Shown one piece after another: positions 3,895 through 28,350 of a stretch of 64,000 bases of DNA (position 1 is the first letter of the stretch; each line of letters begins with the position of its first letter). The notes beneath the pieces are model-generated. The model did not search any database. It worked only from the letters and a program-made list of their open reading frames with translations, and was not told the DNA's origin. Source of the stretch: Muricea muricata (Eukaryota; Cnidaria; Anthozoa; Malacalcyonacea; Plexauridae); NCBI GenBank assembly GCA_963855995.1, contig OY979726.1, positions 4,431,501 through 4,495,500 on the forward strand, written 5' to 3'. Both the position numbers and the translations under genes were made by a program.

Positions 3895-5082
3895 ACGGCA
3901 TTTCCACGTCGTTCTTACATCGTCTTTGGCGTCGCATCATCTTTGATGAACCTCACTATTTTAAATGTAGGGAGGTAGCCGCGGCTCTCTTGACTCTCCC
4001 CGGGCAACGTTCCTGTTTAACAGGGACCATAATTGTTTTTGGAGTCGTAATTTTCCGATCCCAAAGCTTTCAAAAATTAAACATCGTAAAATCATTGTGT
4101 TATAGTTAATAGTGGCAATGAATGCATAATTATTTAATATATAGTTTCGCACTTCAGGACACTTCAGATGCAAATAGGTCTTAGTTACGCAATGTGTTTG
4201 ATTTTGTTCACTCGTATACCAATATATCACTAATAATGCAATAAAGCAGTAGATGACCCCATTGGTACCTGAATTAATATAAGTATAATTAATACAGGCA
4301 CTCTAAAAGCCTAGATGTAAGTAGGTCCTGTTACGCAATGGGTTTGATTTTGTTCATAGAAGGAGAATTCACGTCAATTTTTTCTTATCATGCATCCAGC
4401 ATACATTATATTGGTCTTCGGGTGATGTTTGTTCAGAAATAATGGAATTAATATTAATTTATAGAATTTATTCATAGAAGGGGGATTTTTGTCTATTTTG
4501 CTTATCATGCATCAGCCAGGTTTCAGCTAGATCCAGCATACACTATATTGGCCTTCGGATGATGTTTGTTCAAAAAATGGAAATTCTAACTAATACGTAC
4601 AGTAAGTTGGGTTAGTGCTAGTACTGATCATAGAAAATGACTAATGGCTATATTAAAACACATGTCCTCGTCTTTATGGCCCTGCAGAGTTTCCAACGTA
4701 CACTCTTTGCTTGTTCATTTGTTACATTCCCATGGCAACATACGAGGGTGGATAGCAGTGATATGGTACTGTTTGCCAAATATATTCTTACGTCTGGACG
4801 TCAACAGGTAACAGTGTTTTTGCTCTTGGCAAAAATCACTGTGTCATGCACTAAGGCATAATGACTATACTTGCTCTTCATATGAGTCAAGACATTACGT
4901 AATACTTTTACCCACATTTTTCATAGATAATCAAAGGTATATTCTAATTAGGCATATCAGTCGTGCTGTCGTGTCAACTTTTATGGGGCAACTCAGTTAT
5001 TTGCATGCAGACAAGGTCAAGGACAAGGAACTCTGTGGACTGGAAAAATCGCAGACATAGTTAAACTAGCTTCCGTATCAAT

Positions 5083-5353
5083 AATTTTGTGGAAACACCA
5101 CGTAAATTTAGCATTGAAAAGCTTTCGATCAGTTAGTTCTGATCATCAGTGCTAATGCTGTGACTAATTTAAATTCACCTGTCCGTTGCGATGAATCTTT
5201 CGAACATATATAGGACGTAAGTTTGGCAATCTGGGTGGAACGTGCAGTTTGTTGAATTTGATAATCTGAGTGAAATTTTGTTGAAAGTTTCAAAAGAAGA
5301 AGCGGAAATCATTCTTTTAGCCGATAATAAACTTACGTGAAGTTTCCCAAAAT
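5083..5353. mobile_element. Foldback (MITE-like) upstream of gene A promoter
   Basis: The left arm 'attttgtggaaacaccacg' pairs with a right arm that reads almost the same when reverse-complemented; each arm is about 27 bases. The element lies about 230 bp upstream of the TATA box. Equivalent copies sit in units 2 and 3. Confidence 0.65.
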
Positions 5354-5554
5354 ATATGCTTTGATTTATAACCACCATGCACAGAAACAAGAAACGTATG
5401 TGCCAGGAATTTTTTGCTGAAATTTGTATGAGTGGGAACGGAATCTCATTGAACTTCTGCCGGCACGTTTGCTGTTCGTTACCGTGTGCGTAAGGGGCAT
5501 CAGGAAATTTTTTAAAAATAATTTTTCGCGTCATCCGTAAAGGTGATATCATTC

Positions 5555-5689
5555 CAAAGTTCCCAGGAAAACTACTAATAATCCGATATATATATAAGCA
5601 CGTAAGGGCGTCTTATTCATTAGCTCGTCGAATTGGTGGAGACATACTGAGCTGTACATATTGCAGATTTATAGTTTTCTTAGTCGGTT
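5555..5689 (+). promoter_or_regulatory. Promoter and 5' UTR of IL-17-like gene A
   Basis: TATATATATAAG lies at 5587-5598, about 100 bp upstream of the start codon. Initiation about 30 bp downstream of it (near 5615-5622) would leave a leader of about 70 bases. The block TTCCCAGGAAAAC at about 5560-5572 is kept in all three units. It resembles STAT- or NFAT-type sites, but that is inference only. Confidence 0.6.
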
Positions 5690-7960
5690 ATGAAGAAGGA
5701 CATTTTATTCATGGTAATTTGATTTATAATCACATTCTATAACCTGTTGACATCAATATTATATTTCTTACATTATAAATTTCTGTTTTAAGTTTAAGTA
5801 GTCAATCACAGTATCAATTGAATCCTCTCAAATTATGCCTTAAATGAAAGATGGAGTATGCTTCAGGCCCTCCTCAATAAATATAACGTTCGACAGTATA
5901 TCGGTCGAAAGTATCTTGTGCTGACCAAAGACAGTTATCAGAACTTTGCTGATGATGTAAGCAGGGCCGTAGCTGGTGCCGTAATTGGGGTTGGGGAGGG
6001 GAGGGGGAGCAGGAATTATTTTAAAATTAGTTCTGTCAAGAAAGCAAATAAAACAAAAGCAAAATACGGGTAATATGCCAGCCCTGAGGTAAAACAAGGG
6101 CCCACATGGTGGATGATTGTGCCTCTTTAAGGTCGTTTTAGTCCTGGTATTTGTTTCCGCGATTTTAATCTGTCGCATTTCAAATGAAATCTTCACATCT
6201 TACTAATGGATCGAAGATAATGTTTTCAACAAGAATTATAGTTCTAGACCCGGCATTTGATTCAAATTTCCAATCAGTATAAGGCATGTACATTCGATGG
6301 AAATGCGATGACAAAAACACATCTAACAATGACTGACTCGAATGATGATCACTATTTTAAATACTCAAGCTACGTTTCACTGCTCATGCATTTTCCTCTA
6401 CTCAAATGGTAGTAATCTGTTATAAAGTTACTTTTTCAGGTTTTTGTTTTCATTTGAGTTACAATATTATTATAACTAGGGTTATAGCCAGGCTATCACT
6501 TATATTCAAATATTTAATATTCACAGAACTTTTACAATCTTTTTGCGACAAGCGAGATTATCTTAACTGCCACTGGGGAAGGTAGTCCACGTAAAAGATT
6601 CCTGCAAACGTAGCAGTTTAATTGAATTGTACACGAATGACGTATATGTACAACTTCCTTAGTTCAAATTATTTCCGGGCTCACTTTACAATTAAATGGT
6701 AAACCTTACAGCTAATCAGTTAAGGTTGACATCGACAACTGTAAAAATGTGCAATATAAGCGCCAAAAGAATGATCGGAAGCATCACAGTTTTACATGCA
6801 AATGTAACGATATGATATTAAATATTATAATTGTAATCTCGCAATGTCACTGATGTGCTGAACCTACTTAAAACTATAATATCCTCATAATTTTTTGGTC
6901 GCTCTCATTGCACGTTTAATTGACCATTGTCAATGTCAACAATAAGCAGCATGTGCGCAAAACGCGTTTAATTTTCTACTTTAGTTAGAATTTGTGTTAA
7001 CGTATAGTTCTAATACTCGCAATACTTTGTTGGTAGTTTCACTATTCTTAATTGACGTTTTTGTGTTCCTGTTTGTTTTAGACATTAATTAAACTTCCAG
7101 AGGTATAACAACACACGTTTAACAGAAAATAAAGCGATTTTTATAAGAAAATTTTTTGCGACACCTTATAAGAAAAACACATTATACTGCAGATACCCGT
7201 AAACATATATCTTAGTTAAATATACTACGTTGCTTGAGCTGCGAAAATCTCGCAAAATGCAAACTTATGCCAGCAAAGATAAATATTTTGTTATAATGTT
7301 ATCAACGATTTATAAAATACATGACATTTTAATTAAAGTATTATTTTGTGGGAACACCAAGTAAACTTATTATCGCCAAGCTTTCCTAAATTTTTTCTCT
7401 AGTCCTATAATTGAAGACTTGGTAGCAACCATTTATGGCTTGACGATGATAAATTTACGCGGTGTTTCCTCAGAATTATAGCTACTTTGATTAATTAATA
7501 ATCACCATGCAAACATACAAAGAGCTTATTACATGACATTTTCTCTTCTTCGCAGGCCTATTTTATGTTGCTGTGTGCATTGATACACATTGAAGGCAAA
7601 CCAGTCGGAAAATGCAAGAGTTCTCCCCCAAAAGGTGGAAAAGTGGCAACATACAGAAAAAAGTTCTTGTTTGTGAACGACACTCAACCACCTCCAACTC
7701 AAAACGGTGGAGCGACGCGACCGAACGCAGGAAATTCAAATTGTCCTTGGGAGTGGGATACTAGCTTTGATACAGCAAGAAAACCTATGGTCATCGCAAA
7801 AGCAAAATGTACACTTGACCTGAAATGTGACGCGAAGAGGTGCCGAGAGATCGTCTACCACCACCAGGTTTTGCGACAACATAAAGATTGCGAAACTGGA
7901 GAGTTGGTTTGGAAGTGGGAATTTGAACCATTACCAATAGCATACGTCTACGATGTATAA
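5690..7960 (+). CDS. IL-17-like secreted cytokine, copy A (two exons)
   Basis: Exon 1 is 5690-5713 (M-K-K-D-I-L-F-M) with donor gtaatt. The intron is 5714-7555 (1842 bp, phase 0), with acceptor ttctcttcttcgcag. Exon 2 is 7556-7960. The joined protein has 142 residues. Residues 1-22 form a signal peptide (KK, then a hydrophobic stretch to about 20; cleavage near G22). The mature part has six cysteines: 28, 71, 93, 99, 104 and 120. Its second half fits the IL-17 family: CPWEWD at 71-76, R83-P85, IAKAKC at 88-93, VLR at 113-115, C120, and a C-terminal strand PIAYVYDV. In vertebrate IL-17s that last strand carries a CxC pair; here both positions are Tyr. By family it should be a secreted signalling ligand. 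The short start is chosen because it completes the signal peptide and keeps frame in all copies. Confidence 0.78.
7341..7480. mobile_element. Foldback at the 3' end of the gene A intron
   Basis: The arms 'ttttgtgggaacacc' and, reverse-complemented, a near match including 'ggaaacaccgcgtaaattta' enclose about 75 bases. The arms are related to those of the promoter-proximal foldback, and both copies are followed by a 'tttgatt...taatcaccatgca' block, so the two are paralogous insertions. This one ends about 75 bp before the splice acceptor. Confidence 0.6.
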
Positions 7961-8345
7961 AAGAAAAGATATGGGACTATTTTATTGTTACGTATTTATA
8001 GAAAACATATAAGGGCGGGAAGATTCAAATTAGCTAGAGAAGTTTTAAAATACATTCCTATATGCATACGAAATATTGTAAATATATACCTTTGGGAGTT
8101 TTAAAAAACATTTCCACGCTACATAATATTTGTCATACATATAGTATCGTTATTTATTTAGTTTTCGTGTTGTAGTATTTAAAGTTAGATATTTAGTTTT
8201 ATTTATTCTACAAAATATTTCAAAAGGAGCTAGATTAGCGTCATTGATATATAATATCGTTCTAAATGGAAAGTTAGATTTTTTATCTGATATCAAAGAT
8301 TTTTAGAGATTGATATATTTTAAGAAATTTACAAATAAAAGATTT
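7961..8345 (+). promoter_or_regulatory. 3' UTR of gene A: AU-rich elements and poly(A) signal
   Basis: Overlapping ATTTA pentamers include TTATTTATTTA at 8150-8160 and TTATTTATT at 8199-8207. AATAAA at 8334-8339 is the likely polyadenylation signal. UUAUUUAUU nonamers are classic mRNA-instability elements in animal cytokine transcripts. The element is seen directly; its function is inferred. Confidence 0.6.
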
Positions 8346-9176
8346 TATATAATGAACGAGTGAATTATCTTTTTGCATGCTGGGCTAACTTTGTTACAAA
8401 GTGAAAACAAGTTGTTATAAATTGTCAAAATTCATCATACGTTGTTATCAAGTTCTGTGCGCGCTGTAAGCTAATTCTAGTTTTCACTGTGACAAGTTTT
8501 ACGCAAGCCGATAACCTCAAATAATTAATAGTTATTCTACGAACTCGAGTCGTATATGAGCTATATACGACGAGAGTGAGTAGAATATATAACTGTTTTA
8601 TTATATAGACAACAACTGCTACCAAAAAAATAAAATATACTTATTAGTCAGTTTAGAAATGTAAACAACTTCAGCTAATACCGCATAAAACACTACTTAT
8701 CGTTATTTAAAATTATGTTTCAAACAAACACACACCTTGTTGATCTCAAAATTGAGCACAGTGTTTGTTGTTATATAGCAATTCAAAACAATTATAATCT
8801 TTTCGAGCTTTCGGAAGACTTATTCAGTATTAATTGGTAAAAAACTGTATTTTACACTTGTTCAGGTGACAATCAGATATTACAGAATAATTAGTATTCG
8901 ATGGCAGTCTATACAACTACTACAACACTGCAGACCGCATGACAACTGCATGTTTAAAGAGTGAGAAATGGTTCGAATGAAGCGGAAAGCAAATGTTTTA
9001 ATACTTTGACCTTTATTTTAATTGTGGCCCAACTATATTATTATTGGTCAAATTAAAAATCCTCGGCCTGATTCACCGAACAATTTTAGACATGAGTCAG
9101 GGAAATGTATTTTCTTAAATCACGCATTACGATACGCAAATAACGCTAATCACAGGCTACGAAAATACTATTGTCA

Positions 9177-9194
9177 CCCCCCCCCCCCCCCCCC
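9177..9194. repeat. Poly-C tract (18 C)
   Basis: Uninterrupted C run in the spacer of unit 1. The matching place in unit 2 has 15 C (16543-16557) and in unit 3 a broken C-rich stretch near 22288-22315. Confidence 0.9.
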
Positions 9195-10145
9195 ATAAAC
9201 GTTTGGGGATAGGAATTACATATTTTGGTACAGTCTCGATGTCTTTCAAGGTCCAGTTAACTACACTTATTTTATTTATGTTAAAAACTTACAAATGTCA
9301 AGCTCATTGCTTAATTGATAAGTCGATAACAATAAAACCAATTTACAGGCTCCAATATTTATTACTATTTGAAAGCAGAAGTATAGCAGATACAAATTCG
9401 TAGCATCCAAATCGCAATTAAATAAGTTCCAACACTGACGCCATGCAGCCACACTTATTCTAGCGTTTTCTTTTTGGCGACTATACTGAGATCGATTCTC
9501 TCAGCAGAATTAATATTGTTTTTAAAAAAACTACGTACTAACCGTCATTTTTATACAACTAATTCATGTTGTCAAGACAAAACGCTAAGCCATAGCGTAA
9601 CCATAGCGAAGCCAGCCAGACAATTTTAACCAAAACGCAAATCGTTTTCGTGGCTATAAAGACGGAATTAAATATTTGCACAGCATGACCACATTGTCCG
9701 GCTGGCTCATCGCCATTGGCAACAAACATATATTTCAACAGGGTATAGCTTAAATTTTAGAGGACCTCACTATTACAAAAGGGAGAGGAAGCCACGGCTC
9801 TCTTGGCACGCCCCTGGAAATTTTCCTGTTTAACAGATTCCTTAATTGTTTTGGAATCGTAATTTTCCGGTTCCAAAGCTGTCGAAAAAATTGTAAAATC
9901 ACTGTTATGCCAATGAATGGATAATTATGAGTTACATATTATGTCTCAATATAAAACTCGTATACCGGTATATCACTCATAATGCCATAAAGGGGTAGAT
10001 TACAATATTTGTACTTGAATATGGGAAATTTTTGTCTGTTTTTGCTTATCATGCATCAGCTAGGTTACAGCTAGATCCAGCATACACTATATTGGCCTTC
10101 GGGTGATGTTTGTAAAAAAATTGGAAATTCTAACTATGTGTGTTA

Positions 10146-11256
10146 TTTAAGAAATATAAAAAATTTTCCGTGTTGATATACAGTTATATCAACACGGGTG
10201 GAAATTGGAAAAACGAGAAATTGTGTGGAAACACGACGCCCGCAGGGCGGAGTGTTTTCACACAATTTCGAGTTTTTCCAATTTTCACGAGTGTTGATAT
10301 AACTTTCTCACACATCATTACATATTCATAGCAATTCGGCCAATGATGCTTCCTCATTCACATCACGTGTCTGTACATGAAAACCCAGTCTAGGTCAGTC
10401 TCCTAATATATTCAAGTGGGCAGGGCTTTGAAGCTGAGGGAAATTGAGGGGTAAACAAAAGATTATGCAATTAAACTTAATTGCTGTATTTAGAAATAAA
10501 TTCTAAATACATTAAACTGTATTTAGAAATAAATTCTAAATACAGTTTACTGTATTTAGAATTTTGTTCTAAATACACTTTACTGTTTTTCGAGAATATC
10601 TCCTGGATAAAAAACTTTGGACGGTGTTAGCATCTCGCAATTTAACTAATTTATAACACAAATACACACTGTAAACACGCTTTAAATATACAATTGATCT
10701 ATTCACGACGAACCTAAGCCGAAGTGAACACTTCGTTTCACTTCATGCATGCAAAATTTCATGCAAATGTCATTGGTAAATTTGTTTTTCACCTCAACCA
10801 TATCGTAACGTATCCTAGCATTTTCTTTTGTATTGAACTCATTAGTTCCACTTTAGTGTGCACTCTTTATTGTCCCAGATCTATTTTTTATCAATATCTA
10901 ATCGTCATAATTCCATGCCTCATTGCTATGAATATGTACTGATGTGTGAGAAGCCATATCCAATCCTCGTTGGTGTTTTTGACTTGGCTTCCAACTCCCT
11001 AGTGCCATGAACAATGGCTCGGCTGCGCCTCGCCATTGTTCATGGCACTCGGAGTTAGAAACCACGTCTAAAACACCAACTCGGATTGGATATATTACGT
11101 ATATCAATACGGAAAAATGTTTTATATTTCTTTTATAATATAGCACAAAGAACTTTAACGGAAGAGTGGCGGGAAATTTTCCGTGTTGACATAGAGTTAT
11201 ATCAACACGACTCAGCCAATCAGCGTTCAGAATTTACAAATGCTATATTATAAATA
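10146..11256. mobile_element. Hairpin-rich non-autonomous DNA element (long form)
   Basis: Inserted in unit 2 relative to unit 3. It begins TTTAAGAAATATAAAA and ends near ATTATAAATA. Hairpins include 'ccgtgttgata'/'tatcaacacgg' near both ends, a roughly 100-bp palindrome at about 10190-10310, and another around 10970-11085 centred on 'ggctcggctgcgcctcgcc'. Short palindromic repeats based on 'ctgtatttagaa' lie at about 10483-10585. There is no transposase ORF. A 202-bp deletion form with the same ends is at 63199-63400. Confidence 0.65.
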
Positions 11257-12462
11257 TATATCTATCTCAATATGCGTATACGACTCATACCGCCATAAAA
11301 CAGTAATTAGTACCTTAATATAAATATATCTGATACATACCTGAATATAAACATATCTGATACACTCAGCTGGATTAGTGCTAAAACAGATCTTAAATAA
11401 TCATAAACTTAACTTTTATGGTCCAGTCTCACACTGTAACTCTTCATGCTACTAAAATACTGATCATGTATATACAAAATGACTAATGGCTACTGGTTCA
11501 AATTTTGTGAATTTTTTTTCGTATCTGCTTTTTTAGTATACTAGTGTACGTCAAATTTCAGGCAATTTTGCTCCTTCAAACATTCACACGTTCAAAGTCA
11601 TACAATAGGCCATATAAATTAATAAATTACTCGATTCTCATCATTTAAAAATGAAATTTGAATGATGTTTACTGTTGAACTTTTTAAATTTAAATTTAAA
11701 AAGTTCAATTGATTCGTACAATTCACAACGCGAGTTCGACTTACCTCGCGTCGTATACAGGCATACAAGTTATCACAACCACTCAACTCAACCTAGGAAT
11801 TACTCCCTACACTATTATATTGGTAAATTCCATAAAAAACTGCACTATTTTCAAAACGCTCTGTGGTGTGCAGTTATAATTACTATATAAAATTTCCGCC
11901 CACTTAGTCATGTTTCCCTAGTCCTAATTTAACACTTGGTAGCAACAATTTATGCAATTTATGATACAGATCACATTATGTCTCTGCACATGTCCTCGTC
12001 TTTACGACCCCCAAAGTTTTGAGCTTGCATTCTTCCAAGGCCTCGTCATATGATAACTCAGCAAGCATTCGGCTACGCTCAGTTTAACTTGTGTCTTCAT
12101 ATGCATTTGTTACATTCCCATGGCAACATACGAAGGTGGGTAGCAGTGATATGGTAATGTTTGCCAAATATATTCTTACGTCTGGACGTCAACAGGTAAC
12201 AGTGTTTTTGCTCTTTGGCAAAAATCACTGTATCATGCACTAAGGCATAATGGCTATACTTGCTTTTCATATACGTCAAGACATTACGTAATACTTTTAC
12301 CCATATTTTTCATAGATAATCAAATGTACATTCTAAGGCATATCAGTCGTGCTGTCGTGGCAACTTTTATGGGGCAACTCAGTTATTTGCGTGCAGACAT
12401 AGTCAAGGAACTCTGTGGACTGGAAAAATCGCAGACATAGTAAAACTAGCTTCCGTATCAAT

Positions 12463-12732
12463 AATTTTGTGGAAACACCACGTAAATTTAGCATTGAAAA
12501 GCTTTCGATCCGTTAGTTCCGATCATCAGTGCTAATGCTGCGACTAATTTAAATTCACATGTCCCTTGCAATGAATCTTTCAAACATATAGGACTAAGCT
12601 TGGCAATCTGGGTGGAACGTGCAATTTTTTGAATTTGATAATCTGAGTGGAATTTTGTTGAAAGTTTCAAACGAAGATGCGGAAATCATTCTTTTAGCCA
12701 ATAATAAACTTACGTGGAGTTTCCACAAAATT
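12463..12732. mobile_element. Foldback upstream of gene B promoter
   Basis: Unit 2 counterpart of 5083-5353. The arms 'aattttgtggaaacaccacg' and 'cgtggagtttccacaaaatt' are better matched here than in unit 1. Confidence 0.65.
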
Positions 12733-12929
12733 ATACTTTGATTTATAATCACTATGCACAAAAACGAGAAACGTATGTGCCAGGAATTTTTTGCTGAAAT
12801 TTGTATGAGTGGGAATGGAATGTCATTGAGCTTCTGCCGGCACGTTTGCTGTTCGTTACGCATGTGCGTAAGGGGTATCAGGAAATTTTTTAAAAATAAC
12901 TTCTCGCGTCATCTGAATAGGTGATATCA

Positions 12930-13065
12930 TTCCAAAATTCCCAGGAAAACTACTAATGATCTGATATATAAGGACGTAAGGGCGTCTTATTTCATTACCT
13001 CGTTCGAATTGGTGGAGACATACTGAGCTGTATATATTGCAGATTTATAGTTTTCCAAGTCGGTT
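12930..13065 (+). promoter_or_regulatory. Promoter and 5' UTR of IL-17-like gene B
   Basis: TATATAAGG at 12965-12973 lies about 100 bp before the start codon. The upstream TTCCCAGGAAAAC block and the downstream 'gacgtaagggcgtcttatt' stretch are shared with the other units. Confidence 0.6.
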
Positions 13066-15332
13066 ATGAAGAAGGACATTTTATTAACGGTAATTTGATT
13101 TATAATCACATTCTATAACCTGTTGACGTTGATATTATATTTCCTACATCATAAATTTCTGTTTTAAGTTTAGTAGTCAATTTCTGTTTTAAGTTAAGTA
13201 GTCAATCACAGTATCAAATGAATCCTCTAATCTTATGTATTGAATGAAAAATGGAATATGCTTCAGGCCCTCCACAATAAATATAACGTTCGATAGTATA
13301 TCAGTCGAAATTGTCCTTTGCTGACACGAGACAGTTATCCGAACTTTGCTGATGATGTCAGCAGGACCGTAGCTTGAGGCGTAATTGGGGTTGGGGAGCG
13401 GAGGGGGAGCAGGAATTATTTCAAAATTAGTTCTGTCAAGAAAACAAAGGCCCACATTGCATGGTGGTTACTTGTGCCTCTTTACGACAGTTTTAGTCGT
13501 GCAATTCCTTCCGCGAATTTATAATCCGTCGCATTTCAAATAGAAATTTCTATTTGACGTGAATTGGATATCTTATTAATGGATCCAAGATAACATTTTC
13601 AACCAGAATTATAGTTCTAGACCCGGCTTTTGATTCCAATTTCCAACCAGTATAAGGCATGTACATTCGATGGAAATGTGATGACAAAAACACATCTAAC
13701 AATGACTGACTTAAATGATGATCACTATTTTAAATACTCAAGCAACGTTTCACAGCTCATGCATTTTCCTCTACTCAAATAGTAGTAATCTGTTATAAAG
13801 TTACTTTTTCAGGTTTTTGTTTTCATTTCAGTTATAATATTATAACTAGGGTTATAGCCAGGCTATCACTTATATTTAAATATTTAATTAATATTTACAG
13901 AACTCTTACAATCTTATTGCGACAAGTGAGATTATTTTAGCTGCTACTTGGGAAGGTAGTTCCTGTAAAAGATTCCTGTAAACGTAGCAGTTTAATTGAA
14001 TTGTACACGAATGACGTATATGTACAACTTCCTTAGTTCAAGTGATTTCCGCGCTCACTTTACAATTAAATGGTGAACCTTACAGCTAATCAGTCAAAGT
14101 TGGCATCGACAACTGTAAAAATGTGCAATACGAGCCTCAAAACAATGATCGGAAGAATCACAGTTTTACATGCAAATGTAAAGATATGATACTAAATATT
14201 ATAATTGTAATCCCGCAATGTAACTGATGTGCTGAACCCATTTAAAACTATAATATCCTCATAATTTTTTGGTCGCTCTTATTGCACGTTTCATTGACCA
14301 TTGTCAATGTCAACAATAAGCTGCATGTGTGCTAAACGCGTTTTCTACTTTAGTTAGAATTTGTGTTAACGTATAGATGTTATAGTTCTAATACTCGCAA
14401 TACTTTGTAGGCAGTTTCACTATTCTTAATTGACGTTTTTGTGCTCCTGTTTGTTTTAGACATTAATTAAACTTCCAGAGGTATAACAACACACGTTTAA
14501 CAGAAAATAAAGCGATTTTTATAAGAAAATTTTTTGCGACACCTTATAAGAAAAACACATTATACTGCAGATACCCGTAAACATATATCTTAGTTAAATA
14601 TACTACGTTGCTTGAGCTGCGAAAATCTCGCAAAATGCAAACTTATGCCAGCAAAGATAAATATTTTGTTATAATGTTATCAACGATTTATAAAATACAT
14701 GACATTATAATTAAAGTATAATTTTGTGGGAACACCACGTAATCTTATTATCGCCAAGCTTTCCTAAATTTTTTCTCTAGTTCTAATTGAAGGCTTGGTA
14801 GCAACCATTTATAGCTTGACGATGATAAATTTACGCGGTGTTTCCTCAGAATTATACTTTGATTAATTAATAATCACCATGCAAACATACAAAGAGCTTA
14901 TTACATAACATTTTCTCTTCTTCGCAGGCCTATTTTATGTTGCTGTGTGCATTGATACACATTGAAGGCAAACCAGTCGGAAAATGCAAGAGTTCTCCCC
15001 CAAAAGGTGGAAAAGTTGCAACATACAGAAAAAAGTTCTTGTTTGTGAACGACACTCAACCACCTCCAATTCAAAACGGTGGAGCGACGCGACCGAACGC
15101 AGGAAATTCAAATTGTCCTTGGGAGTGGGATACTAGCTTTGATACAGCAAGAAAACCTATGGTCATCGCAAAAGCAAAATGTACACCTGACCTGAAATGT
15201 GACGCGAAGAGGTGCCGAGAGATCGTCTACCACCACCAGGTTTTGCGACAACATAAAGATTGCGACACTGGAGAGTTGGTTTGGAAGTGGGAATTTGAAC
15301 CATTGCCAATAGCATACGTCTTCGATGTATAA
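13066..15332 (+). CDS. IL-17-like secreted cytokine, copy B (two exons)
   Basis: Exon 1 is 13066-13089 (M-K-K-D-I-L-L-T), intron 13090-14927 (1838 bp, phase 0), exon 2 14928-15332. The protein has 142 residues with the same signal peptide, six mature cysteines and CPWEWD core as copy A. By eye, exon 2 differs from copy A at six bases; four change the residue (T to I in the proline-rich loop, L to P after AKC, E to D after C120, Y to F near the C-terminus). There are no stops, and the splice sites are intact. Copies A and B are the closest pair. Confidence 0.78.
14718..14855. mobile_element. Foldback at the 3' end of the gene B intron
   Basis: Counterpart of 7341-7480 with the same arms and the same distance to the acceptor. 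Confidence 0.6.
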
Positions 15333-16542: not shown

Positions 16543-16557
16543 CCCCCCCCCCCCCCC
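16543..16557. repeat. Poly-C tract (15 C)
   Basis: Unit 2 counterpart of the run at 9177-9194; length differs between units. Confidence 0.9.
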
Positions 16558-18374
16558 AATAAACGTTTGGGGATAGGAATTACATATTTGGGTACAGTCT
16601 CGATGTCTTTCAAGATCCAGTTAACTACACTTATTTGATTTATGTTAAAAACTTACAAATGTCAAACTCATTGCTTAATTGATAAGTCGATAACAATAAA
16701 ACCAATTTACAGGCTCCAATATTTATCACTATTTGAAAACTGAAGTATAGCAGATACAAATTCGTAGCATCCAAATCGCAATTAAATAAGTTTCAACACT
16801 GACGCCATGCAGCCACACTTATTCTAGCGTTTTCTTTTTGGTGACTATACTGAGATCGATTCTCTCAGCGAAATTAATATTGTTTTTCAAAAAACTACGT
16901 ACTAACCGTCATTATTATCCAACTAATTCATGTTGTAAAGACAAAGCGCTAAGCCATAGCGTAACCATAGCGAAGCCAGCCAGACAATTTTACCCAAAAC
17001 GCAAATTTTAAATCGTTAACATAATTCATTTCTTTAAAAGAAATCGTTTTCGTGGCTATAAAGACGGAATTAAATATTTGCACAGCATCACCACATTGTC
17101 CAGCTAGCTCATCGCCATTGGCAACAAACACATATTTCAACAGCGTAGCTTAAATTTTAGAGAACCTCACTATTGCAAAACAGAGAGGAAGCCACGGCTC
17201 TCTTGGCCCTCCTCTTGTAATTTTCCTGTTTAACAGGGACCTTAATTGTTTTGGAATCGTAATTTTATTTTTCCGGTATCAAAGCTGTCGAAAAAATTGT
17301 AAAATCATTGTGTTCTGCCAATGAATGGATCATTATGAGTTACATATTATGTCTCAATATAAGACTCGTATACCGCTATATCACTCATAATGCCATAAAG
17401 CAGTAGATGACTCCATTGGTGCCTGAATATGGGGGATTTTTGTCCATTTTTGCTTATCATGCACCAGCCAGGTTTCAGCTAGATCCAGCATACGCTATAT
17501 ATTGGCCTTCGGGTGATGTTTGTTTAAAAAAAAAGGAAATTCTAACTATGTGTGTTATATATGCGTATATGACTCATAACGCCATAAAACAGTAATTAGT
17601 ACCTGAATATAAATATTTCTGATACATACCTGAATATAAATATATCTGATACATTAAGCTGGATTAGTGCTAAAACAGATCTTAAATAATCATAAACTTA
17701 ACTTTTATGGTCCGGTCTCATACTGTAACTCTTCATGCTACTAAAATACTGATCATATACCCAAAATGACCAATGGCTACTGGTTCAAATTTTGTGGGGG
17801 TTTTTTTCGTATCTGCTTTTTTAGTATACTAGTGTACGTCAAATTTCAGACAATTTTGCTCCTTCAAACATTCGCACGTTCAAAGTCATACAATAGGCCA
17901 TATAAATTAACAAATTACTCGATTCTCGTCATTTAAAAATGAAATTTGAATGATGTTTACTGTTGAACTTTTTAAATTTAAATTTAAAAAGTTCAGTTGA
18001 TTTAAATAATGTGTTCATTTGTTACATTCCCATGGCAACATACGAGGGTGGATAGCAGTGATATAGTAAAGTTTGCCAAATATGTTCTTACGTCTGGAGG
18101 TCAACAGGTAACAGTGTTTTTGTTCTTTGGCAAAAATCACTGTGTCATGCACTAAGGCATAATGGCTATACTTGCTCTTCATATACGTCAAAATATTACA
18201 TAATACTTTTACCCACATTTTTCATAGATAATCAAACGTACATTCGAAAGCATATCAGTCGTGCTATCGTGTCAACTTTTATGGGGCAACTCAGTTGTTT
18301 GCGTGCAGAGAAAGTCAAGGAACTCTGTGGACTGGAAAAATCGCAGACATAGTAAAACTAGCTTCCGTATCAAT

Positions 18375-18658
18375 AATTTTGTGGAAACACCACGTAAATT
18401 TAGTATTGAAAAGCTTTCCATCGGTTAGTTCCGATCTTCGTCAGTGCTAATACTGCGACTAATTTAAATTCACATGTCCCTTGCAATGAATCTTTCGAAC
18501 ATATAGAACGGAAGCTTGGCAATCTGGGTGGAACGTGCAATTTGTTGAATTTGATAATCTGAGTGGAATTTTGTTGAAAGTTTCAATAGAAGATGCGGAA
18601 ATCATTCTCTTAGCCGATAATAAATTTACGTGGAGTACCCACAAAATTATACTTTGAT
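18375..18658. mobile_element. Foldback upstream of gene C promoter
   Basis: Unit 3 counterpart of 5083-5353; arms 'aattttgtggaaacaccacg' and 'cgtggagtacccacaaaatt'. Confidence 0.65.
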
Positions 18659-18849
18659 TTATAATCACCATGCCAAAGTACGAGAAAGGTAGGTGCCAGG
18701 AACTTTTTGCTGAAGTTTGTATAAGTGGCAACGAAATCTAATTGAACTTCTGCCGGTACGTTTGCTGTTTGTTACGCATGTGCGTATAAGGGGGTATCAG
18801 GAAATTTTTTAAAAATAACTTTTCGCGTCATCTGAACAGGTGATATCAT

Positions 18850-18986
18850 TTCAAAATTCCCAGGAAAACTACTTATGATCTGATATATACAAGGACGTAA
18901 GGGCGTCTTATTTCATTACCTCGTTCGAATTGGTGGAGACATACTGAGCTGTATATATTGCAGATTTATAGTTTTCCAAGTCGGTT
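18850..18986 (+). promoter_or_regulatory. Promoter and 5' UTR of IL-17-like gene C
   Basis: A TATATAC box at 18884-18890 has one change from the A and B boxes. The TTCCCAGGAAAAC block lies just upstream at about 18857-18869, and the leader is well conserved. Confidence 0.55.
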
Positions 18987-21259
18987 ATGGAGAAGGACAT
19001 TTTATTAATGGTAATTTGATTTATAATCACATTCTATAACCTGTTGACGTCGATATTATATTTCCTACATCATAAATTTCTGTTTTAAGTTTAGTAGTCA
19101 ATTTCTGTTTTAAGTTAAGTAGTCAATCACAGTATTAAATGAATCCTCTCAAATTATGCCTTGAATGAAAGATGGAATATGCTTTAGGCCCTCCACAATT
19201 AATATAACGTTCGATAGTATATCGGTCGGAAGTGTCTTGTGCTGACACGAGACAGTTATCCGAACTTTGCTGATGATGTCAGCAGGACCGTAGCTTGAGG
19301 CGTAATTGGAGTTGGGGAGCGGAGGGGGAGCAGGAATTATTTCAAAATTAGTTCTGTCAAGAAACAAAGGCCCACATTGCATGTTGGTTACTTGTGCCTC
19401 TTTAAGACAGTTTTAGTCGTGGCATTTCCTTCCGCGAATTTATAATCCGTCGCATTTCAAATAAAGATTTCTATTTACGTGAATTGGATATCTTATTAAT
19501 GGATCCAAGATAACATTTTCAACCAGAATTATAGTTCTAGACCCGGCTTTTGATTCCAATTTCCAACCAGTATAAGGCATGCATGTACATTCGATGGAAA
19601 TGCGATGACAAAAACACATCTAACAATGACTGACTTAAATGATGATCACTATTTTAAATACTCAAGCAACGTTTCACAGCTCATGCATTTTCCTCTACTC
19701 AAATAGTAGTAATCTGTTATTAAATTACTTTTTCAGGTTTTTGTTTTCATTTCAGTTATAATATTATAACTAGGGTTATAGCCAGGCTATCACTTGCATT
19801 TAAATATTTAATATTTACAGAACTTTTGCAATCTTTTTGCTACAAGCGAGATTATTTTAACTGCCACTTGGGAAGGTAGTTCCTGTAAAAGATTCCTGTA
19901 AACGTAGCAGTTTAATTGAATTGTACACGAATGACGTATATGTACAACTTCCTTAGTTCAAATAATTTCCGCGCTCATTTTACAATTAAATGATAAACCT
20001 TACAGCTAATCAGTTAAGGTTGACATCGACAACTGTAAAAATGTGCAATATAAGCGCCAAAAGAATGATCGGAAGAATCACAGTTTTACATGCAAATGTA
20101 AAGATATGATACTAAATGTTATAATTGTAATCCCGCATGACACTGATGTGCTGAACCTATTTAAAACTATAGTATCCCCATAATTTTTCGGTCGCTCTTA
20201 TTGCATTTTAATTGAATTTTGTCAATGTCGCTAGAATAGGCTCCATGTGTCCTAAACGCGTTTCCACTTTAGTTAGAATTTGTGTTAACGTATAGATGTT
20301 AGTTCTAATACTCGACATACTCTGTAGGCAGTTTCCCTATTCTTAATTGACGTTTTGTGGTCCTATTTGTTTTAGACGTTAATTAAACTTCCAGACGAAT
20401 AACAACACACGTTTAACAGAAAATAAAGCGATTTTTATAAGGGAATTTTTTGGAGACACCTCATAAGCAAAACACATTATACTGCAGATACCCGTAAACA
20501 TATATCTTAGTTAAATATACTACGTTGCTTGAGCTGCGAAGTGCGAAAATCTCGCAAAATGCAAACTTATGCCAGCAAAGATAAATATTTTGTTATAGTG
20601 TTATCAACGATTTATTAAATACATGACATTTTAATTAAAGTATAATTTTGTGGGAACACAACGTAAACTTATTATCGCCAAGCTTTCCTAATTTTTTTCT
20701 CTAGTTCTAATTGAAGACTTGGTAGCAACCATTCATGGCTTGGCGATGATAACTTTACGCGGTGTTTCCTCAGAATTATACTTTGACTTTAAATTAATAA
20801 TCACCATGAAAACATACAAGGAACTTACTACATAACATTTTCTCTTTTTCGTAGGCCTGTTTGATGTTGCTGTGTGCATTGATACACATTGAAGGCAAAC
20901 CAGTCGGAAAATGCAAGAGTTCTCCCCCAAAAGGTGGAAAAGTTGTCACATACAGAAAAAAGTTCTTGTTTGTGAACGACACTCAACCACCTCCAATTCA
21001 AAACGGTGGAGCGACGCGACCAAACGCAGGAAATTCGAATTGTCCTTGGGAGTGGGATACTAGCATTGATTCCGCAAGAAAACCTATGGTCATCGCAAAA
21101 GCAAAATGTACACCTGACCTGAAATGTGACGCGAAGAAGTGCCGAGAGATCGTCTACAACCACAAGGTTTTGCGAAAACATAAAGATTGCGACACTGGAG
21201 AGTTGGTTTGGAAGTGGGAATTTGAACCATTGCCAATAGCATATGTCTACCATGTATAA
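18987..21259 (+). CDS. IL-17-like secreted cytokine, copy C (two exons)
   Basis: Exon 1 is 18987-19010 (M-E-K-D-I-L-L-M), intron 19011-20854 (1844 bp, phase 0; acceptor tctttttcgtag), exon 2 20855-21259. The protein has 142 residues with an intact signal peptide, six mature cysteines and CPWEWD. By eye it differs from copy B in exon 2 at about 11 residues, including F to I and T to S just after CPWEWD, two Q to K changes around VLR, and Y-H-V at the C-terminus. Residue-changing differences clearly outnumber silent ones. A long minus-strand ORF across this exon is a shadow. Confidence 0.78.
20641..20779. mobile_element. Foldback at the 3' end of the gene C intron
   Basis: Counterpart of 7341-7480 and 14718-14855. 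Confidence 0.6.
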
Positions 21260-21635
21260 AAGATGGGACTATTTTATTGTTAACTATTTATAAAAAACAT
21301 GTATGGGCGGGAAGATTTTCAGACTTTCAAATTAGCTAGAGAAGTTTTAAAATACATTCGTATGCATACGAAATATTGTAAATATATACCTTTAGGAGTT
21401 TTAAAAACATTTCCATGCTGCATAATATTACGTTATCTATTTAGTTTTCGTGTTGTAGTATTTATAGTTAGATATGATATTTAGTTTTATTTATTCTACA
21501 AAATATTTAACAAGGAGCTATATTAGCGTAATTGATATATAATATCGTTCTAAAAGGAAAGTTAGATTTTTCATCTGATATCAAAGATGTTTAGAGATTA
21601 ATATATTTTAAGAAATTTACAAATAAAAGATTTTA
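21260..21635 (+). promoter_or_regulatory. 3' UTR of gene C: AU-rich element and poly(A) signal
   Basis: The first nonamer seen in A and B is broken by one change (TTATCTATT), but TTATTTATT at 21487-21495 and AATAAA at 21622-21627 are kept. Confidence 0.55.
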
Positions 21636-22837
21636 TATAATGAATGAGTGAATTATCTTTTTGTTGGGCTAACTTGTTGCAAATTAGTGAAAATAAGTCG
21701 TTATAAATTGTCAAAATTCATTATACGTTGTTATCAACTTCTGTGCGCACTGTAAGCTAATTCTAGTTTTCACTGCGACAAGTTTTAAGCAAACCGATAA
21801 CCTCATATAATTAATACTTATTCTACGAACTCGTGTCGTATATGAGCTATATACGACAAAAGTGAGTATAGAATAACTGTTTTATTATATAGACAACAAC
21901 TGCTACCAAAAAAACTTCCCAGTTAGATTTTAATAAAATATATTTATTAGTCAGTTTAGCAATGTAAACAACTTCAGCTAATACCGCATAAAACACTACT
22001 TATCGTTATTTAAAATTATGTTTCAAACAAACACACAACTTGTTGATCTCAAAATTGAGCACAGTGTTTGTTATTATAGCAATTCAAAACAATTATAATC
22101 TTTTCCAGCTTTCGGGAGACTTATTCAGCATTAATTGGTAAAAAACTGTATTTTATACTTGTTCAGGTGACAATCAGATTAGAATAATCAATATTCGATG
22201 GCAGTCTATACAACTACTATAACTACCATATCACGCATTACGATACGCAAATAACGCTAATCACGGGCTACGAAAACACCATTGTTTCCCTCCCCTCCCC
22301 CCTCCCCGGCCCTCCTAAACCTTTGGGGATAGGAATTACATATTTTGGTACAGTCTCGATGTCTTTCAGGATCCAGTCAACTACACTTATTTTATTTATG
22401 TTAAAAACTTACAAATGTCAAACTCATTGCTTAATTGATAAGTCGATAACAATAAAACCAATTTACAGGCTCCAATATTTATTACTATTTGAAAACTGAA
22501 GTATAGCAGATACAAATTCGTAGCATCCAAATCGCAATTAAATAAGTTTCAACAGCGACGCTATGCAGCCACACTTATTCTAGCGTTTTCTTTTTGGCGA
22601 CTACACTGAGATCTATTCTCTCAGCAAAATTTTTTTTTTTAAAACTTAACGTACTAACCTTCATGATTATAGAGCTAACTCATGTTCTCAAGACAAAACG
22701 CTAAGAGGAAACCATACAACAAACAGTAGCGAAGCCGGCCAGACATTTTTGCCCAAACCGCAAACTTTAAATGGTTAACATAATTCATTTCCGTTGGCAG
22801 CAAACATATATTTCAACAGCGTAGGCTAAATTTTAGA

Positions 22838-24573: not shown

Positions 24574-27500
24574 ATGAAGAGGAATACTTTGTTCACGGTA
24601 AATTTGATTTATATTCATATTTAGTTCCTTTTAAATATAGAGTTATGTTTCTAAAATCATTAATTTCAGTTTTAAATATAATTAGTCTCTATATAAGTTT
24701 TAATTCAAATCCAACTTGTGTAAAGAAAAACAGAAAGGTAATCGGATACAGGGTATGAAACAGGTAAAGGGAATGCAATTAGGTACCTCGAAATATTATT
24801 TAAGATATACTGTATGGTGGGTATCAAACGGGTATAACTGAAGTTTATAGAGTGCTCTAGCGCACTCGATATATTTAACAGAAATTAATGATTCATTTAC
24901 AGTCTGAGGACCCGCAAAGTTTTTAGCTTTCGAATAACAGCATTTAGAAAACCTGAACAAAGTTGAAACAAATTCGAATTAAACTTAATTTATGAAATTA
25001 TTTTAACTTTGGGGAACTCCCGACAGACCAAATTTTAGCTTGGATAGCAACATTATACAAGCGCATTGTTCAAGTTGAAATGGAATTTATTTTTCTTTTT
25101 GCTGCCTTAATAAATTGCTAATCAAGTGGTGGAAATATGCAATTCGTCTATAGAAATTTTTATTTGCTTCGTATATTTAACTTTCTATAAATCCTTATCC
25201 TTCCTGATGATATATTCGAAATTATAAGCCTGCATGATCTTTCCAACTGTGAAGGAAATATTTCTTTTCAGTATAATTTTAGTAAATAATGGTTTTCAAG
25301 CATTTTGATTGGTTGCCTGACCCGTAAATATGAGGACATTATTTACTAGTTTGCCTTTTTTTTCAAAATGGCCGCCAATGAAAGTCGTTTTAATATTTTA
25401 TACTTTTGCCAAAATTAACAAATGGAGAAAAATTGCATTAATACAAAGTCAAGAAATATTAATAAACTTTGATGTTAAATAAATCGTCTGCAAATAACTT
25501 ATTAAATACTCTTTTCACTATTCAAAACTTTGGGAAGAATTTTTCGAAGTAAACTGTATTCTTAAAAGAAGCGCGTTTTATACATGTTTTACTAAAGAAA
25601 TTATACTAAAACAATTATTCGTCTCGGTGAATATTCACCAACAATCACTTCGCCTTCGGCGAATAATTGTTAAATATTAAATATTTAACGCGTTAGAGCG
25701 CTATGTAGATCTATCGAGCGCCGACAGTATTTTCATTCAAAATAAATTGCGCGTGCATTTTGATTATGATAAATTTAACATATTCATGGCACTTAAACGT
25801 TGAAAAGAAGATTTGGTGCTTGAAGGTTGAATGTAATGTGCTCAAGACTATAAGATGAATAAAAATGAATTATTTTTAGCAATCGACAGCTTTAAATTGA
25901 TATTCTGTTCTTAATTGTAATTGTAAGTACAATCAATTATATATTTAATGAACTGTGACGATACCAATATTTGAAGTTTATAACTAATAAAGGCTTTTAA
26001 TCTCGTTGAGAAAAGGCGCGATTATCTATAACTTCTCTTTGGGAAGCCAATTCCTGAAAACGAGATCATTGTGAATTCTCAAATTAGGGCATTTCACGTA
26101 GCAGGGTGGTTCAAATGAAGAGTCTGATTCTGCCCGGCTAATTTCATTTGAATCAACTTTAATAACAATTGATTTGAAAAGAAATTCGTCGGGCAGAACT
26201 GAAATAATGAATATACACTCGCTATTTACCATTCTAGCCCCGATAACGAGTTCCAGTAGTTTGTAACAAAGCGTCAAAAGCATGAATATTCTATTTAGTT
26301 TGTTTTGATATTCATTTAGTTTGTTTTGATATTTATACTCGGTCTTTACGATAAAATATTAAACCGAGGTCTTGAGGTTGAGGTTAATAAGTTTGTTTAT
26401 TATACAGAGTGTTCCAGAAACAAGTAACACTATAGAAATTAACCTATTGTTATAATCTGAATGCCTGAGCACTATACTAAACCCACAGGTGCATAACATT
26501 TGTTTTGCTTGACTCGCGGGCGCTAAAATATTTGGACGAGGCGAAAACGATTTAAAATGCTTAAATGTAAATACAATTTCATTAAATTCCCAGATGTGTA
26601 ATCACGCCCGTTTAAGAACAATGAGATAATTTCTATAGTGTCACTTTTTTCTGGGACACTCTGTATGGCATTTTGAAATTTTTGAATTTTGAGTTTTCAT
26701 TTTAAAACTAAACAGATGATGTAATCTTTTACTTGTTGTCTTTTTTACGGTGTTTTCACTCTTTTGGGCATTCACGAAACTGTCTATATAGCCTCCATCG
26801 GTATAATTGTTGTTATTAAAAACTTCGCTTGCTTCAAAAACTTCGCTTGCTTCAAATTTTTCACTTTGCAAACTTACATTTAAATTGCCTTCCTCAGAGC
26901 AATAAAACTCACTCTCTGAGTGTTCGTCGTCTCTCATTCCCCTGCTCTTTCTTACAGCAATTTACATGTTTTATAAAAAATACTAGTCTACTGTTTTTAC
27001 TGTTTTGGTTGATATGGAAAGAAATTTGTCTGTCACAACCCAAATGCATGCATATTCATCCCTTCCCTTTCTAGTTATATAGCCGTCCTGGTTGTGTAAG
27101 CTGAGAAAATCAAAGCTAAAGTTTATATAAATTGAGCTGAAGACATAATTTGAACTTTGTCATGACGATTCTTGTGATTTCTTTTTTGTTTCCTAATGCA
27201 TTATTGGAATAGTATTGGAATAACCACAGAGGGTCATAAAAACAACTTTATTGTTCGTAACGTTTCGGGGCATTACTCCATCTTCAAGTACTACAAACAC
27301 AGATTGCTTTTTGTATCACCTGAAGAAGAAACAATGCTCCGAAACGTTGTAAACAATGCTGTTATTTGATTTGTTTTTAATTCCAATATTCTATTTTGAA
27401 AATAGGCTTAGAGAAAATTCGATAATAAATGATGATGAACGTTTTCTTGTATAAATGATGATGAACGTTGTCTTGAATTTGATGAACGTTTTCTTGAAAA

Positions 27501-27905
27501 TCTTTGCAGATTTTCTGCTGTGCCTGTATATGCATTGAAGGCAAGCCTGTAAGAAAATGTAAGAAGTCTCCCCCGAAACGTGGAAAGGTCACCAGGTACA
27601 GAACTATGTTCTTGTTTATAAATGATAGCCTACAACCTCCAATTCAAAACAGTGGAATAATGCGGGTGAATCCAGGAACAACAAACTGTCCTTGGGAGTG
27701 GGATACTAGCATTGATTCAGCAAGAAAACCCATGGTCATCGCAAAAGCAAAATGTACACCTGACTTGAAATGTGACGCGAAGAAGTGTCGAGAGATCGTC
27801 TACAACCACCAGGTTTTGCGACAGCACAAAGATTGCAAAACTGGAGAGTTGGTTTGGAAGTGGGAATTTGAACCATTGCCAATAGCATACGTGTACGATG
27901 TATAA
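24574..27905 (+). CDS. IL-17-like secreted cytokine, copy D (two exons, divergent)
   Basis: Exon 1 is 24574-24597 (M-K-R-N-T-L-F-T), intron 24598-27509 (2912 bp, phase 0; acceptor aaaatctttgcag), exon 2 27510-27905. The protein has 139 residues. The intron start still aligns with A-C ('gatttata..tcat', then 'tttcagttttaaatataatta'), which supports the exon 1 call. The N-terminal half differs strongly from A-C (KPVRKCKKSPPKRGK; proline loop LQPPIQNSG), while from CPWEWD onward it is almost the same as copy C and so is the 3' UTR. All six mature cysteines are kept. The intron has gained a TA-flanked MITE (26405-26663) and a foldback (27232-27371). No clear TATA box is seen upstream, and an earlier out-of-frame ATG occurs at 24462, so transcription is less certain than for A-C. 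Confidence 0.7.
24847..25704. mobile_element. Possible TIR element in the gene D intron
   Basis: The left end 'atagagtgctctagcgcact' and the right end (reverse complement 'atagcgctctaacgcgttaa') are similar, each followed by an AT-rich 'atatttaa' block. There is no transposase ORF and the target duplication is unclear. Confidence 0.35.
26026..26283 (-). other. Unassigned 85-codon ORF inside the gene D intron
   Basis: Open frame with a protein-like composition (VLPDEFLFKSIVIKVDSNEI) but no domain I recognise, and no splice or promoter support. It could be a chance ORF or a fragment of a decayed element. Confidence 0.15.
26405..26663. mobile_element. Tc1/mariner-type MITE with 42-bp TIRs
   Basis: CAGAGTGTTCCAGAAA...at the left and TTCTGGGACACTCTG at the right form inverted repeats of about 40 bases with few mismatches, flanked on both sides by TA. 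The element is 259 bp with no ORF. TA target duplication and CAGRGTG ends are typical of Tc1/mariner non-autonomous elements. Confidence 0.75.
26666..26937 (-). other. Unassigned acidic ORF fragment
   Basis: A minus-strand open frame starts at 26937 with an acidic serine-rich N-terminus (MRDDEHSESEFYCSEE) and contains a perfect 18-bp tandem duplication (about 26821-26857) that doubles the residues E-A-S-E-V-F. It runs into the MITE at 26663. It could be the N-terminus of a transposase-like protein, but I cannot assign it. Confidence 0.2.
27232..27371. mobile_element. Foldback element near the 3' end of the gene D intron
   Basis: 'gtaacgtttcggggcattac' at about 27258 pairs with the reverse complement of 'aatgctccgaaacgttgtaa' near 27332-27355. 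The arms extend outward with mismatches. The 'GAAGAAG...CGAAACGTT' motif is common in metazoan repeats. Confidence 0.5.
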
Positions 27906-28300
27906 AAGAGAACAACTAGGACTATTTTATTGTTAACTATTTATAGAAAACATATAAGTGCGGGAAGATTTTAAGACTTTCAAATTAGCTAGAGAAGTTT
28001 TAAAATACATTCCTATGCATACGAAACATTGTAAATATATACCTTAGGGAGCTTTATAAAACATGACCACAATGCATAATATCTGTCATACATATAGTAT
28101 CGTTATTTATTTAGTTTTCGTGTTGGAGCATTTATATAGTTAGAAATTTAGTTTTATTTATTGCACAAAGTATTTCAAAAGGAGATTAGCGTCATTGATA
28201 TATAATATCATTCTAAAAGGAAAGTTAGATTTTTCATCTGATATCAAACATTTTTAGAGATTCATATATTTTAAGAAATTCACAAATAAAAGATTTTATA
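27906..28300 (+). promoter_or_regulatory. 3' UTR of gene D: AU-rich elements and poly(A) signal
   Basis: TTATTTATTTA at 28103-28113, TTATTTATT at 28154-28162 and AATAAA at 28285-28290. The whole segment matches the A-C 3' UTRs closely, unlike the gene's 5' half. Confidence 0.6.
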
Positions 28301-28311
28301 TAATGAATGAG

Positions 28312-28350
28312 TATACGTGTACGATGTGATGAAGCAAAGAAACTAGCACT
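28312..28350 (+). pseudogene. Relic of the C-terminal end of a fifth IL-17-like copy
   Basis: 'atacgtgtacgatgt' followed by 'gatgaagcaaagaaactag' matches the end of gene D exon 2 (coding Y-V-Y-D-V) and the first bases of its 3' UTR, with small changes. About 40 bases only, so chance or a local slip cannot be excluded. Confidence 0.4.

What the first reader, a model, noticed from the sequence alone, without database searches (positions are those of the whole stretch)
3951..28350. Tandem array of four IL-17-like cytokine genes in a basal-metazoan genome
Three 5.7-7.4 kb direct repeats each carry a two-exon gene for a secreted six-cysteine protein with IL-17 hallmarks (CPW, R-x-P, AKC, VLR, a later Cys and a final beta strand), and a fourth older copy follows. 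Seen: the repeats, exons, splice sites and signal peptides. Family assignment is by motif. A lineage-specific cytokine expansion of this kind suggests an immune or barrier function under change.
Basis: partly seen in the sequence, partly recalled or inferred. Interest (0 to 1): 0.9.

Follow-up and report, generated by a model that had tools for sequence, protein, structure and literature searches.

The report
Octocoral IL-17-like gene array, altered cysteines
An octocoral (the soft coral and sea fan group) carries a large, recently duplicated family of genes for small secreted proteins that resemble the immune signal interleukin-17, and these proteins lack two cysteines that the family normally uses to hold its shape.

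Summary
Three direct repeats (exon-2 spacing 7,372 and 5,927 bases) each carry a predicted two-exon gene for a secreted 142-residue protein; a fourth copy (139 residues) follows. Copies 1-3 pass the Pfam IL17 cut-off (25.2-26.9 bits, cut-off 24); copy 4 scores 23.1. A family profile finds IL-17F structures (E 1.2e-4).

The mitochondrial contig carries MutS, so the host is an octocoral. The four genes belong to a 10-locus, 127-kb cluster; 27 loci lie in three clusters. Three SEFIR genes near a transmembrane exon are candidate receptors.

(1) The two C-terminal knot cysteines (CTC) are replaced by aromatic residues: 28 of 28 aligned rows with a C-terminus lack the first, 27 of 28 the second. (2) Copy 4 has a sharply bounded tract, from the CPW motif to the expected poly(A) site, homogenised with the others.

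Verdict: a real, expanded IL-17-like family with an altered cysteine pattern, a new variant of a known kind. Fold, expression and signalling are untested.

The parts
3948..10149 (+). Tandem unit 1 with its boundary sequence (boundary copies at 3948-4592, 9764-10136 and 17162-17548)
   Evidence: self-BLAST
5690..5713 (+). Copy 1, exon 1 coding part (MKKDILFM), donor GTAATT
7556..7960 (+). Copy 1, exon 2 coding part with IL-17-like domain and stop
   Evidence: (26.5 bits)
11270..17561 (+). Tandem unit 2 (self-BLAST pieces 11270-11714 and 12104-17561)
13066..13089 (+). Copy 2, exon 1 coding part
14928..15332 (+). Copy 2, exon 2 coding part with IL-17-like domain and stop
   Evidence: (25.2 bits)
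17559..22791 (+). Tandem unit 3
18987..19010 (+). Copy 3, exon 1 coding part
20855..21259 (+). Copy 3, exon 2 coding part with IL-17-like domain and stop
   Evidence: (26.9 bits)
24574..24597 (+). Copy 4, exon 1 coding part (least certain exon)
   Evidence: 6 mismatches in 24 to copy 1; 118-column match of 75%
27510..27905 (+). Copy 4, exon 2 coding part with IL-17-like domain and stop
   Evidence: (23.1 bits, cut-off 24)
27687..28312 (+). Tract of copy 4 homogenised with copies 1-3: second half of exon 2 and 3' untranslated region up to the expected poly(A) site
28285..28290 (+). AATAAA signal of copy 4; those of copies 1-3 start at 8334, 15704 and 21622

Best explanation
These are host genes of an octocoral for small secreted ligands of the IL-17 domain family. 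Shown: repeats and open two-exon gene models, IL-17 profile match, a 27-locus family in three clusters, and replacement of the two C-terminal knot cysteines by aromatic residues in the relatives examined. Inferred: the proteins fold like IL-17; the CPW cysteine and the cysteine nine residues before the VLR strand form the extra disulfide described for invertebrate IL-17s; the N-terminal cysteine and the KDC cysteine may link two chains (as I recall for IL-17F); and the two cysteines left without partners (AKC and the next one) pair with each other or stay free. Secreted by epithelium, dimers would act on transmembrane SEFIR receptors and drive NF-kB-type signalling at the body surface. The array grew by tandem duplication, probably unequal crossing-over, and at least one gene-conversion event carried the receptor-binding half into copy 4.
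For: Pfam IL17 above cut-off for 3 of 4 window copies and 8 of 10 relatives tested singly; 29 of 29 A4 members match it at E up to 10. PDB profile hits: 25 distinct chains, all named interleukin-17F, 17A or 25. The closing strand aligns with the strand that carries GCTC in both alignments made, and 28 of 28 A4 rows with a C-terminus have Tyr or Phe at the first cysteine. C60, C82, C88 and C93 are invariant in A4. 27 loci counted. Three SEFIR genes with a transmembrane open frame just upstream. Conversion: 50-52 of 182 differences against 13 of 214 next to it; dS 0.73-0.82 against 0.19-0.25.
Against: One window protein alone finds nothing in the PDB. Copy 4 and two paralogues (L014, L042; about 15 bits) are below the Pfam cut-off. 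Two C2 genes (L007, L008) have a cysteine at the second position. The names of the public relatives' organisms are unknown and some come from the same or a near species. The break-point test was run on one pair only (copy 2 against copy 4).
Confidence: 0.7

Rival explanations
1. The genes are canonical IL-17s; the missing cysteines sit in an unseen third exon reached by alternative splicing.
For: No RNA data were available; the Pfam match stops before the end of the profile (1-63 of 81 in copies 1-3).
Against: A stop follows the closing strand within a few residues in paralogues and relatives with quite different ends, and the strand itself aligns with the cysteine-bearing strand.
Confidence: 0.07
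2. The proteins keep the IL-17 domain but no longer act as cytokines: they serve as secreted antimicrobial, venom or structural proteins.
For: Small, basic (pI 9.2-9.6), secreted, cysteine-bearing, in large tandem families; loss of the knot pair suggests relaxed structural demands.
Against: IL-17 core motifs are kept, with 7 invariant columns in A4, and candidate receptors exist in the genome; binding was not tested.
Confidence: 0.2
3. Copy 4's similarity to copies 1-3 comes from selection on the second half of the protein and the 3' untranslated region, not from gene conversion.
For: The tract ends at the expected poly(A) site, so it lies wholly in transcribed sequence.
Against: Synonymous divergence also drops, from 0.73-0.82 to 0.19-0.25, and the 3' UTR of copies 1-3 differs by 4.0-5.9%, close to their other non-coding DNA (4.6-8.7%), so it is not strongly constrained.
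Confidence: 0.15
4. The three units are an assembly error such as retained haplotypes.
For: No reads were available; invertebrate heterozygosity can be high.
Against: Non-coding differences of 4.6-8.7%, an insertion between units 1 and 2, a separate four-unit array of another subfamily nearby and similar clusters elsewhere in the genome.
Confidence: 0.05

Closest known systems
Sea urchin SpIL17 family (PMC5457136, passages seen)
   Same: Two-exon SpIL17-1 genes with almost nothing coded in exon 1, eight in a 59.8-kb tandem array, 35 genes with five broken or truncated, only two receptors; subfamilies 3 and 9 lack the C-terminal cysteine pair.
   Different: There the loss is in two of ten subfamilies and the authors leave truncation open; here none of the 24 own-genome loci read to the end keeps the pair.
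Anthozoan IL-17 genes: 11 in Pocillopora damicornis, 3 in Nematostella vectensis, none found in Hydra (PMC8353272, passages seen)
   Same: Phylum Cnidaria, IL-17 domain, CPW motif.
   Different: Those are hexacorals; here an octocoral with 27 loci. Their C-termini were not seen, so it is open whether they share the cysteine loss.
Invertebrate IL-17s in general (PMC4517768, section 12 and passages)
   Same: D..R.P..I..A.C motif, VLR motif with the preceding cysteine, CPW cysteine: the third disulfide of invertebrates.
   Different: The closing motif [VI][APT]V[GA]CTC[VA] has both cysteines replaced.
Human IL-17F and IL-17A (structures found)
   Same: xPW motif, D..R.P..I..A.C motif, VLR or VVR strand, closing strand.
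   Different: GCTC is replaced by AYVY or AYVF; the invertebrate cysteine pair (Ser in chordates) is present; 19% identity over 116 columns.

Membership tests
Interleukin-17 family | Match to the IL17 domain profile (PF06083) above its cut-off | tested here: met
   26.5, 25.2, 26.9 bits for copies 1-3, cut-off 24; copy 4 23.1, just below
Interleukin-17 family | Core motif D..R.P..I..A.C followed by a second cysteine | tested here: met
   R72, P74, C82 and C88 invariant in 29 of 29 rows; PDB profile hit covers this region
Interleukin-17 family | Extra cysteine pair of invertebrate members (CPW cysteine and the cysteine before the VLR strand) | tested here: met
   C60 and C93 invariant in 29 of 29 rows; their pairing is not shown
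Interleukin-17 family | Two C-terminal knot cysteines (motif CTC) | tested here: not met
   0 of 28 A4 rows with a C-terminus have the first, 1 of 28 the second; register by two alignments; motif from PMC4517768
Interleukin-17 family | Cystine-knot fold and dimer | not testable with these tools
   structure prediction switched off
Interleukin-17 family | Secreted, with signal peptide | tested here: inconclusive
   hydrophobic leader, best 12-residue mean hydropathy 2.4-3.0; no signal-peptide program or experiment
Interleukin-17 family | Signals through SEFIR-domain receptors | not testable with these tools
   candidate receptors exist in the genome; binding untested
Octocorallia (host) | MutS gene in the mitochondrial genome (hallmark recalled) | tested here: met
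   985-residue open frame on C74 with MutS and HNH domains, on the contig that holds COX1

The most novel reading that the evidence does not exclude
Octocorals possess a class of IL-17 ligands that has given up the two C-terminal disulfides of the cystine knot (GCTC changed to A[Y/F][V/I]Y) and holds the fold with a different cysteine set, while the family has grown to about 27 loci in one genome and passes its receptor-binding half between copies by gene conversion.
Probability: 0.55. Interest if true: 0.65.

Novelty: new variant of a known kind. Interest (0 to 1): 0.5.

Why it matters
[quoted passage not shown] A lineage that keeps the domain but not the C-terminal cysteines would show which parts of the fold are dispensable, would warn that cysteine-based surveys can miss members, and would give a non-bilaterian case of the ligand-rich, receptor-poor expansion known from sea urchins. 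Disease and symbiont control in octocorals are settings in which to test it.

Tried and rejected
NF-kB-like sites: 3 in the window against 1.68 expected, 23 of 100 shuffles with as many, so nothing beyond chance. Relatives in prokaryote genome contigs and viral contigs: none confirmed among 52 and 42 pattern matches (records near the window's own genome may be left out there). PDB search with one window protein: no hit; only the family profile reached IL-17. Considered and dropped: copy 4 as a retroposed copy (it has an intron and an exon 1 with homology; no poly(A) run follows the tract). A cDNA template for the tract remains possible only because it ends at the expected poly(A) site. Positive selection among copies 1-3: too few changes. 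Whether 31369-31977 is a mobile element or a relic unit: the genome search did not complete. Six-frame ORFs were collected for a wider neighbour scan that I did not carry out; 10 chosen ORFs were scanned. The tree leaves two C12 genes on long branches without a sure place. Literature: ten searches, none with the word octocoral; most hits were seen only as listings, six papers as passages and one section in full. I saw no report of an octocoral IL-17 family or of this cysteine change, which does not prove absence. Chen et al. 2024 (PNAS, on the origin of the IL-17 pathway) is not held and was not read.

Full report
What is there. The window holds three direct repeats with exon-2 start spacing of 7,372 and 5,927 bases, and a fourth, partial copy 6,646 bases further on. 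Self-BLAST shows units 1 and 2 alike at 90.1% over 5,571 columns and units 2 and 3 at 92.2% over 4,254. Each gene model has an exon 1 that codes for eight residues (24 bases), a GTAA donor, an intron of 1.8 kb (2.9 kb in copy 4) and an exon 2 that codes for the rest. The joined proteins are 142, 142, 142 and 139 residues long. Each begins with a hydrophobic leader; the mature part is taken as 120 residues with six cysteines and pI 9.2-9.6. AATAAA signals lie at 8334, 15704, 21622 and 28285. No RNA data were available.

Is it chance or artefact? Repeats of this length are far beyond chance. Non-coding differences between units are 4.6-8.7%, and units 1 and 2 are separated by an insertion (10144-11256, whose ends match 63197-63400). 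They are therefore unlikely to be retained haplotypes, but reads were not available to exclude it.

Which organism. The COX1 profile found a 19,292-base contig, C74. By my reading of its open frames under table 4, cox2, atp6 and cox3 lie on one strand and nad6, cob, nad1, cox1, nad4 and others on the other; a tRNA scan of its first 10 kb, the only part scanned, gave tRNA-Met alone. It carries a 985-residue MutS with an HNH domain. A mitochondrial MutS is, as I recall, a hallmark of octocorals, so the host is an octocoral; the species is unknown. The genome has 453 Mb in 74 contigs.

Is it IL-17? Pfam IL17 is the best family for all four copies: 26.5, 25.2, 26.9 and 23.1 bits against a cut-off of 24. 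At E up to 10, 29 of 29 members of alignment A4 match it, best E 8.9e-9; of ten members looked at singly, eight pass the cut-off and two score about 15. One window protein finds nothing in the PDB, but the profile of 14 relatives finds 25 distinct chains at E up to 10, all interleukin-17F, 17A or 25, best 1.2e-4.

The missing cysteines. In PMC4517768 (section 12) the closing motif of IL-17 is YExxxEx[VI][APT]V[GA]CTC[VA], with few exceptions among 89 proteins; four cysteines are named there as important for the knot. In both alignments the closing strand of the present family lies in register with that of the human chains, and the two cysteines are replaced: ITVAYVY or LPIAYVY. Of 29 rows of A4, 28 have a C-terminus: the first position is Tyr in 24 and Phe in 4, the second is Tyr in 26, Phe in 1 and Cys in 1, and no row has GCxC or ACxC there. 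A4 is a selection: it holds the 4 window copies, 17 public relatives and 8 of the other own-genome loci, with one pair identical over the rows compared (P0016 and L027). The public relatives have no organism names, and P0005 equals a C2 gene of this genome over the rows compared, so some come from the same or a near species. Of the 27 own-genome loci I read exon 2 to the end in 24 (8 on C11, 3 on C12, 13 on C2; counted by eye): 24 of 24 lack the first cysteine and 22 of 24 the second; L007 and L008, whose open frames are short (88 residues), have AYVC. AKC and the next cysteine, partners of the lost pair by what is known of IL-17, remain with 2, 3 or 5 residues between them, and C60 and C93, the extra pair of invertebrate IL-17s, are invariant. 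Sea urchin subfamilies 3 and 9 also lack the C-terminal pair, with truncation left open by the authors (PMC5457136, passages). The loss thus has a precedent, but not, in what I read, over a whole repertoire.

The wider family. A search of the genome with copy 2 gives 29 matches at E up to 10, from which I count 27 loci: 10 on C11, 3 on C12 and 14 on C2 (tallied). One weak match (E 3.8) is left out and one broken gene matches twice. Counts are lower bounds. On C11 the cluster spans 4332909-4459402 and the scan of 4321501-4495500 found no others: an inverted gene, four tandem units of about 8.7 kb (4342383-4376527, gene-bearing parts 88-96% alike), two broken copies (one within those units), and the window's four. 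The Pfam search of the genome gives 10 matches at E up to 0.001, nine in the C2 cluster and one in the C12 cluster, so no canonical copy was seen elsewhere; distant or split exons could be missed, as the C11 genes themselves are not among those 10. The tree groups the window genes with P0001-P0003 and the upstream C11 genes (93/93), and C2 with one C12 gene and P0004-P0017 (97/95); the other two C12 genes have long branches and no sure place.

Receptors. SEFIR gives 5 matches, which I read as 4 genes, all on C3. In L044, L045 and L046 an open frame with a strong transmembrane segment (best 19-residue mean hydropathy 2.4-2.9) lies just upstream on the same strand, and these SEFIR domains score 41-50 bits. 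The fourth gene was not resolved. Exon joining and ectodomains were not examined.

Copy 4 and gene conversion. Against copies 1-3, copy 4 differs at 50-52 of 182 bases in the first half of exon 2, at 13 of 214 in the second half and at 31-33 of 350-364 after the stop. For copy 2 against copy 4 the sharpest change falls at 27687; 0 of 2,000 shuffles were as strong (the other pairs were not tested). Synonymous divergence falls from 0.73-0.82 to 0.19-0.25. The 3' UTR of copy 4 differs by 8.1-9.2% from those of copies 1-3, which differ among themselves by 4.0-5.9%. Homology ends at 28312, 27 bases after the start of AATAAA, as in copy 1 (8334 to 8361); beyond it the flanks fall to background. I read this as conversion of the receptor-binding half. 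Its end at the expected poly(A) site allows, but does not show, a cDNA template.

How it may work. The most likely reading is a set of secreted, probably dimeric, IL-17-type ligands that act on SEFIR receptors at epithelia. Homology, clusters and the cysteine change are shown; fold, disulfides, dimers, receptor use and immune role are inferred. The dN/dS of copies 1-3 (0.54-0.78 on 8 to 22 changes) is too thin to claim selection.

Against what is known. Ordinary: IL-17 genes in Anthozoa (11 in Pocillopora, 3 in Nematostella; PMC8353272, passages) and two-exon, tandem, ligand-rich expansions (PMC5457136, passages; PMC8353272, passages). Less ordinary: an octocoral repertoire of 27 loci and the loss of the C-terminal knot pair in every locus read to its end. 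Because that defining feature was tested and not met, I file it as an IL-17-like family rather than as canonical cystine-knot IL-17, and as a new variant of a known kind. Whether hexacoral IL-17s share the loss could not be tested here.

Noticed in passing
window 10144-11256 and 63197-63400: An insertion between units 1 and 2 whose two ends match a short element at 63197-63400 at 96-98%: probably a mobile element and a shortened relative.
   Followed up: no
window 31369-31977: A 600-base stretch 83.5-85.6% like part of the intron of copies 1-3, without the rest of the unit: a relic unit or a dispersed element in the intron. The genome search did not complete.
   Followed up: partly
window 34193-37372 (-) and 38187-41611 (+): Two LINE-type elements with reverse transcriptase (and endonuclease in the first) and the 2A-like motif DIATNPGP near the start of a frame in each (the 2A reading is recalled).
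   Followed up: partly
window 54338-57426 and 60655-61227 (-): Copia-type retrotransposon parts: gag and pol domains, pol in two adjoining frames.
   Followed up: partly
window 29778-30290 (+): Transposase frame with a DDE_3 domain, 38.4 bits.
   Followed up: partly
C11:4380187-4387358 and 4399470-4406580: A 7.1-kb inverted repeat at 98.5% identity between the two IL-17-like sub-arrays.
   Followed up: no
L022, L023, L024, L025 (C2): Four loci 26-60 kb apart whose exon-2 proteins are identical while the 3.2-kb stretches differ at 23-37 bases: recent duplication, conversion, or an assembly question.
   Followed up: partly
C1:38414782-38416095 (L050): A second COX1 match, with one TAA, on the nuclear contig C1: probably a nuclear copy of mitochondrial DNA.
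   Followed up: no
L014, L042: Paralogues that keep the four core cysteines but score only about 15 bits with Pfam IL17, so Pfam-based counts in octocorals would be too low.
   Followed up: partly
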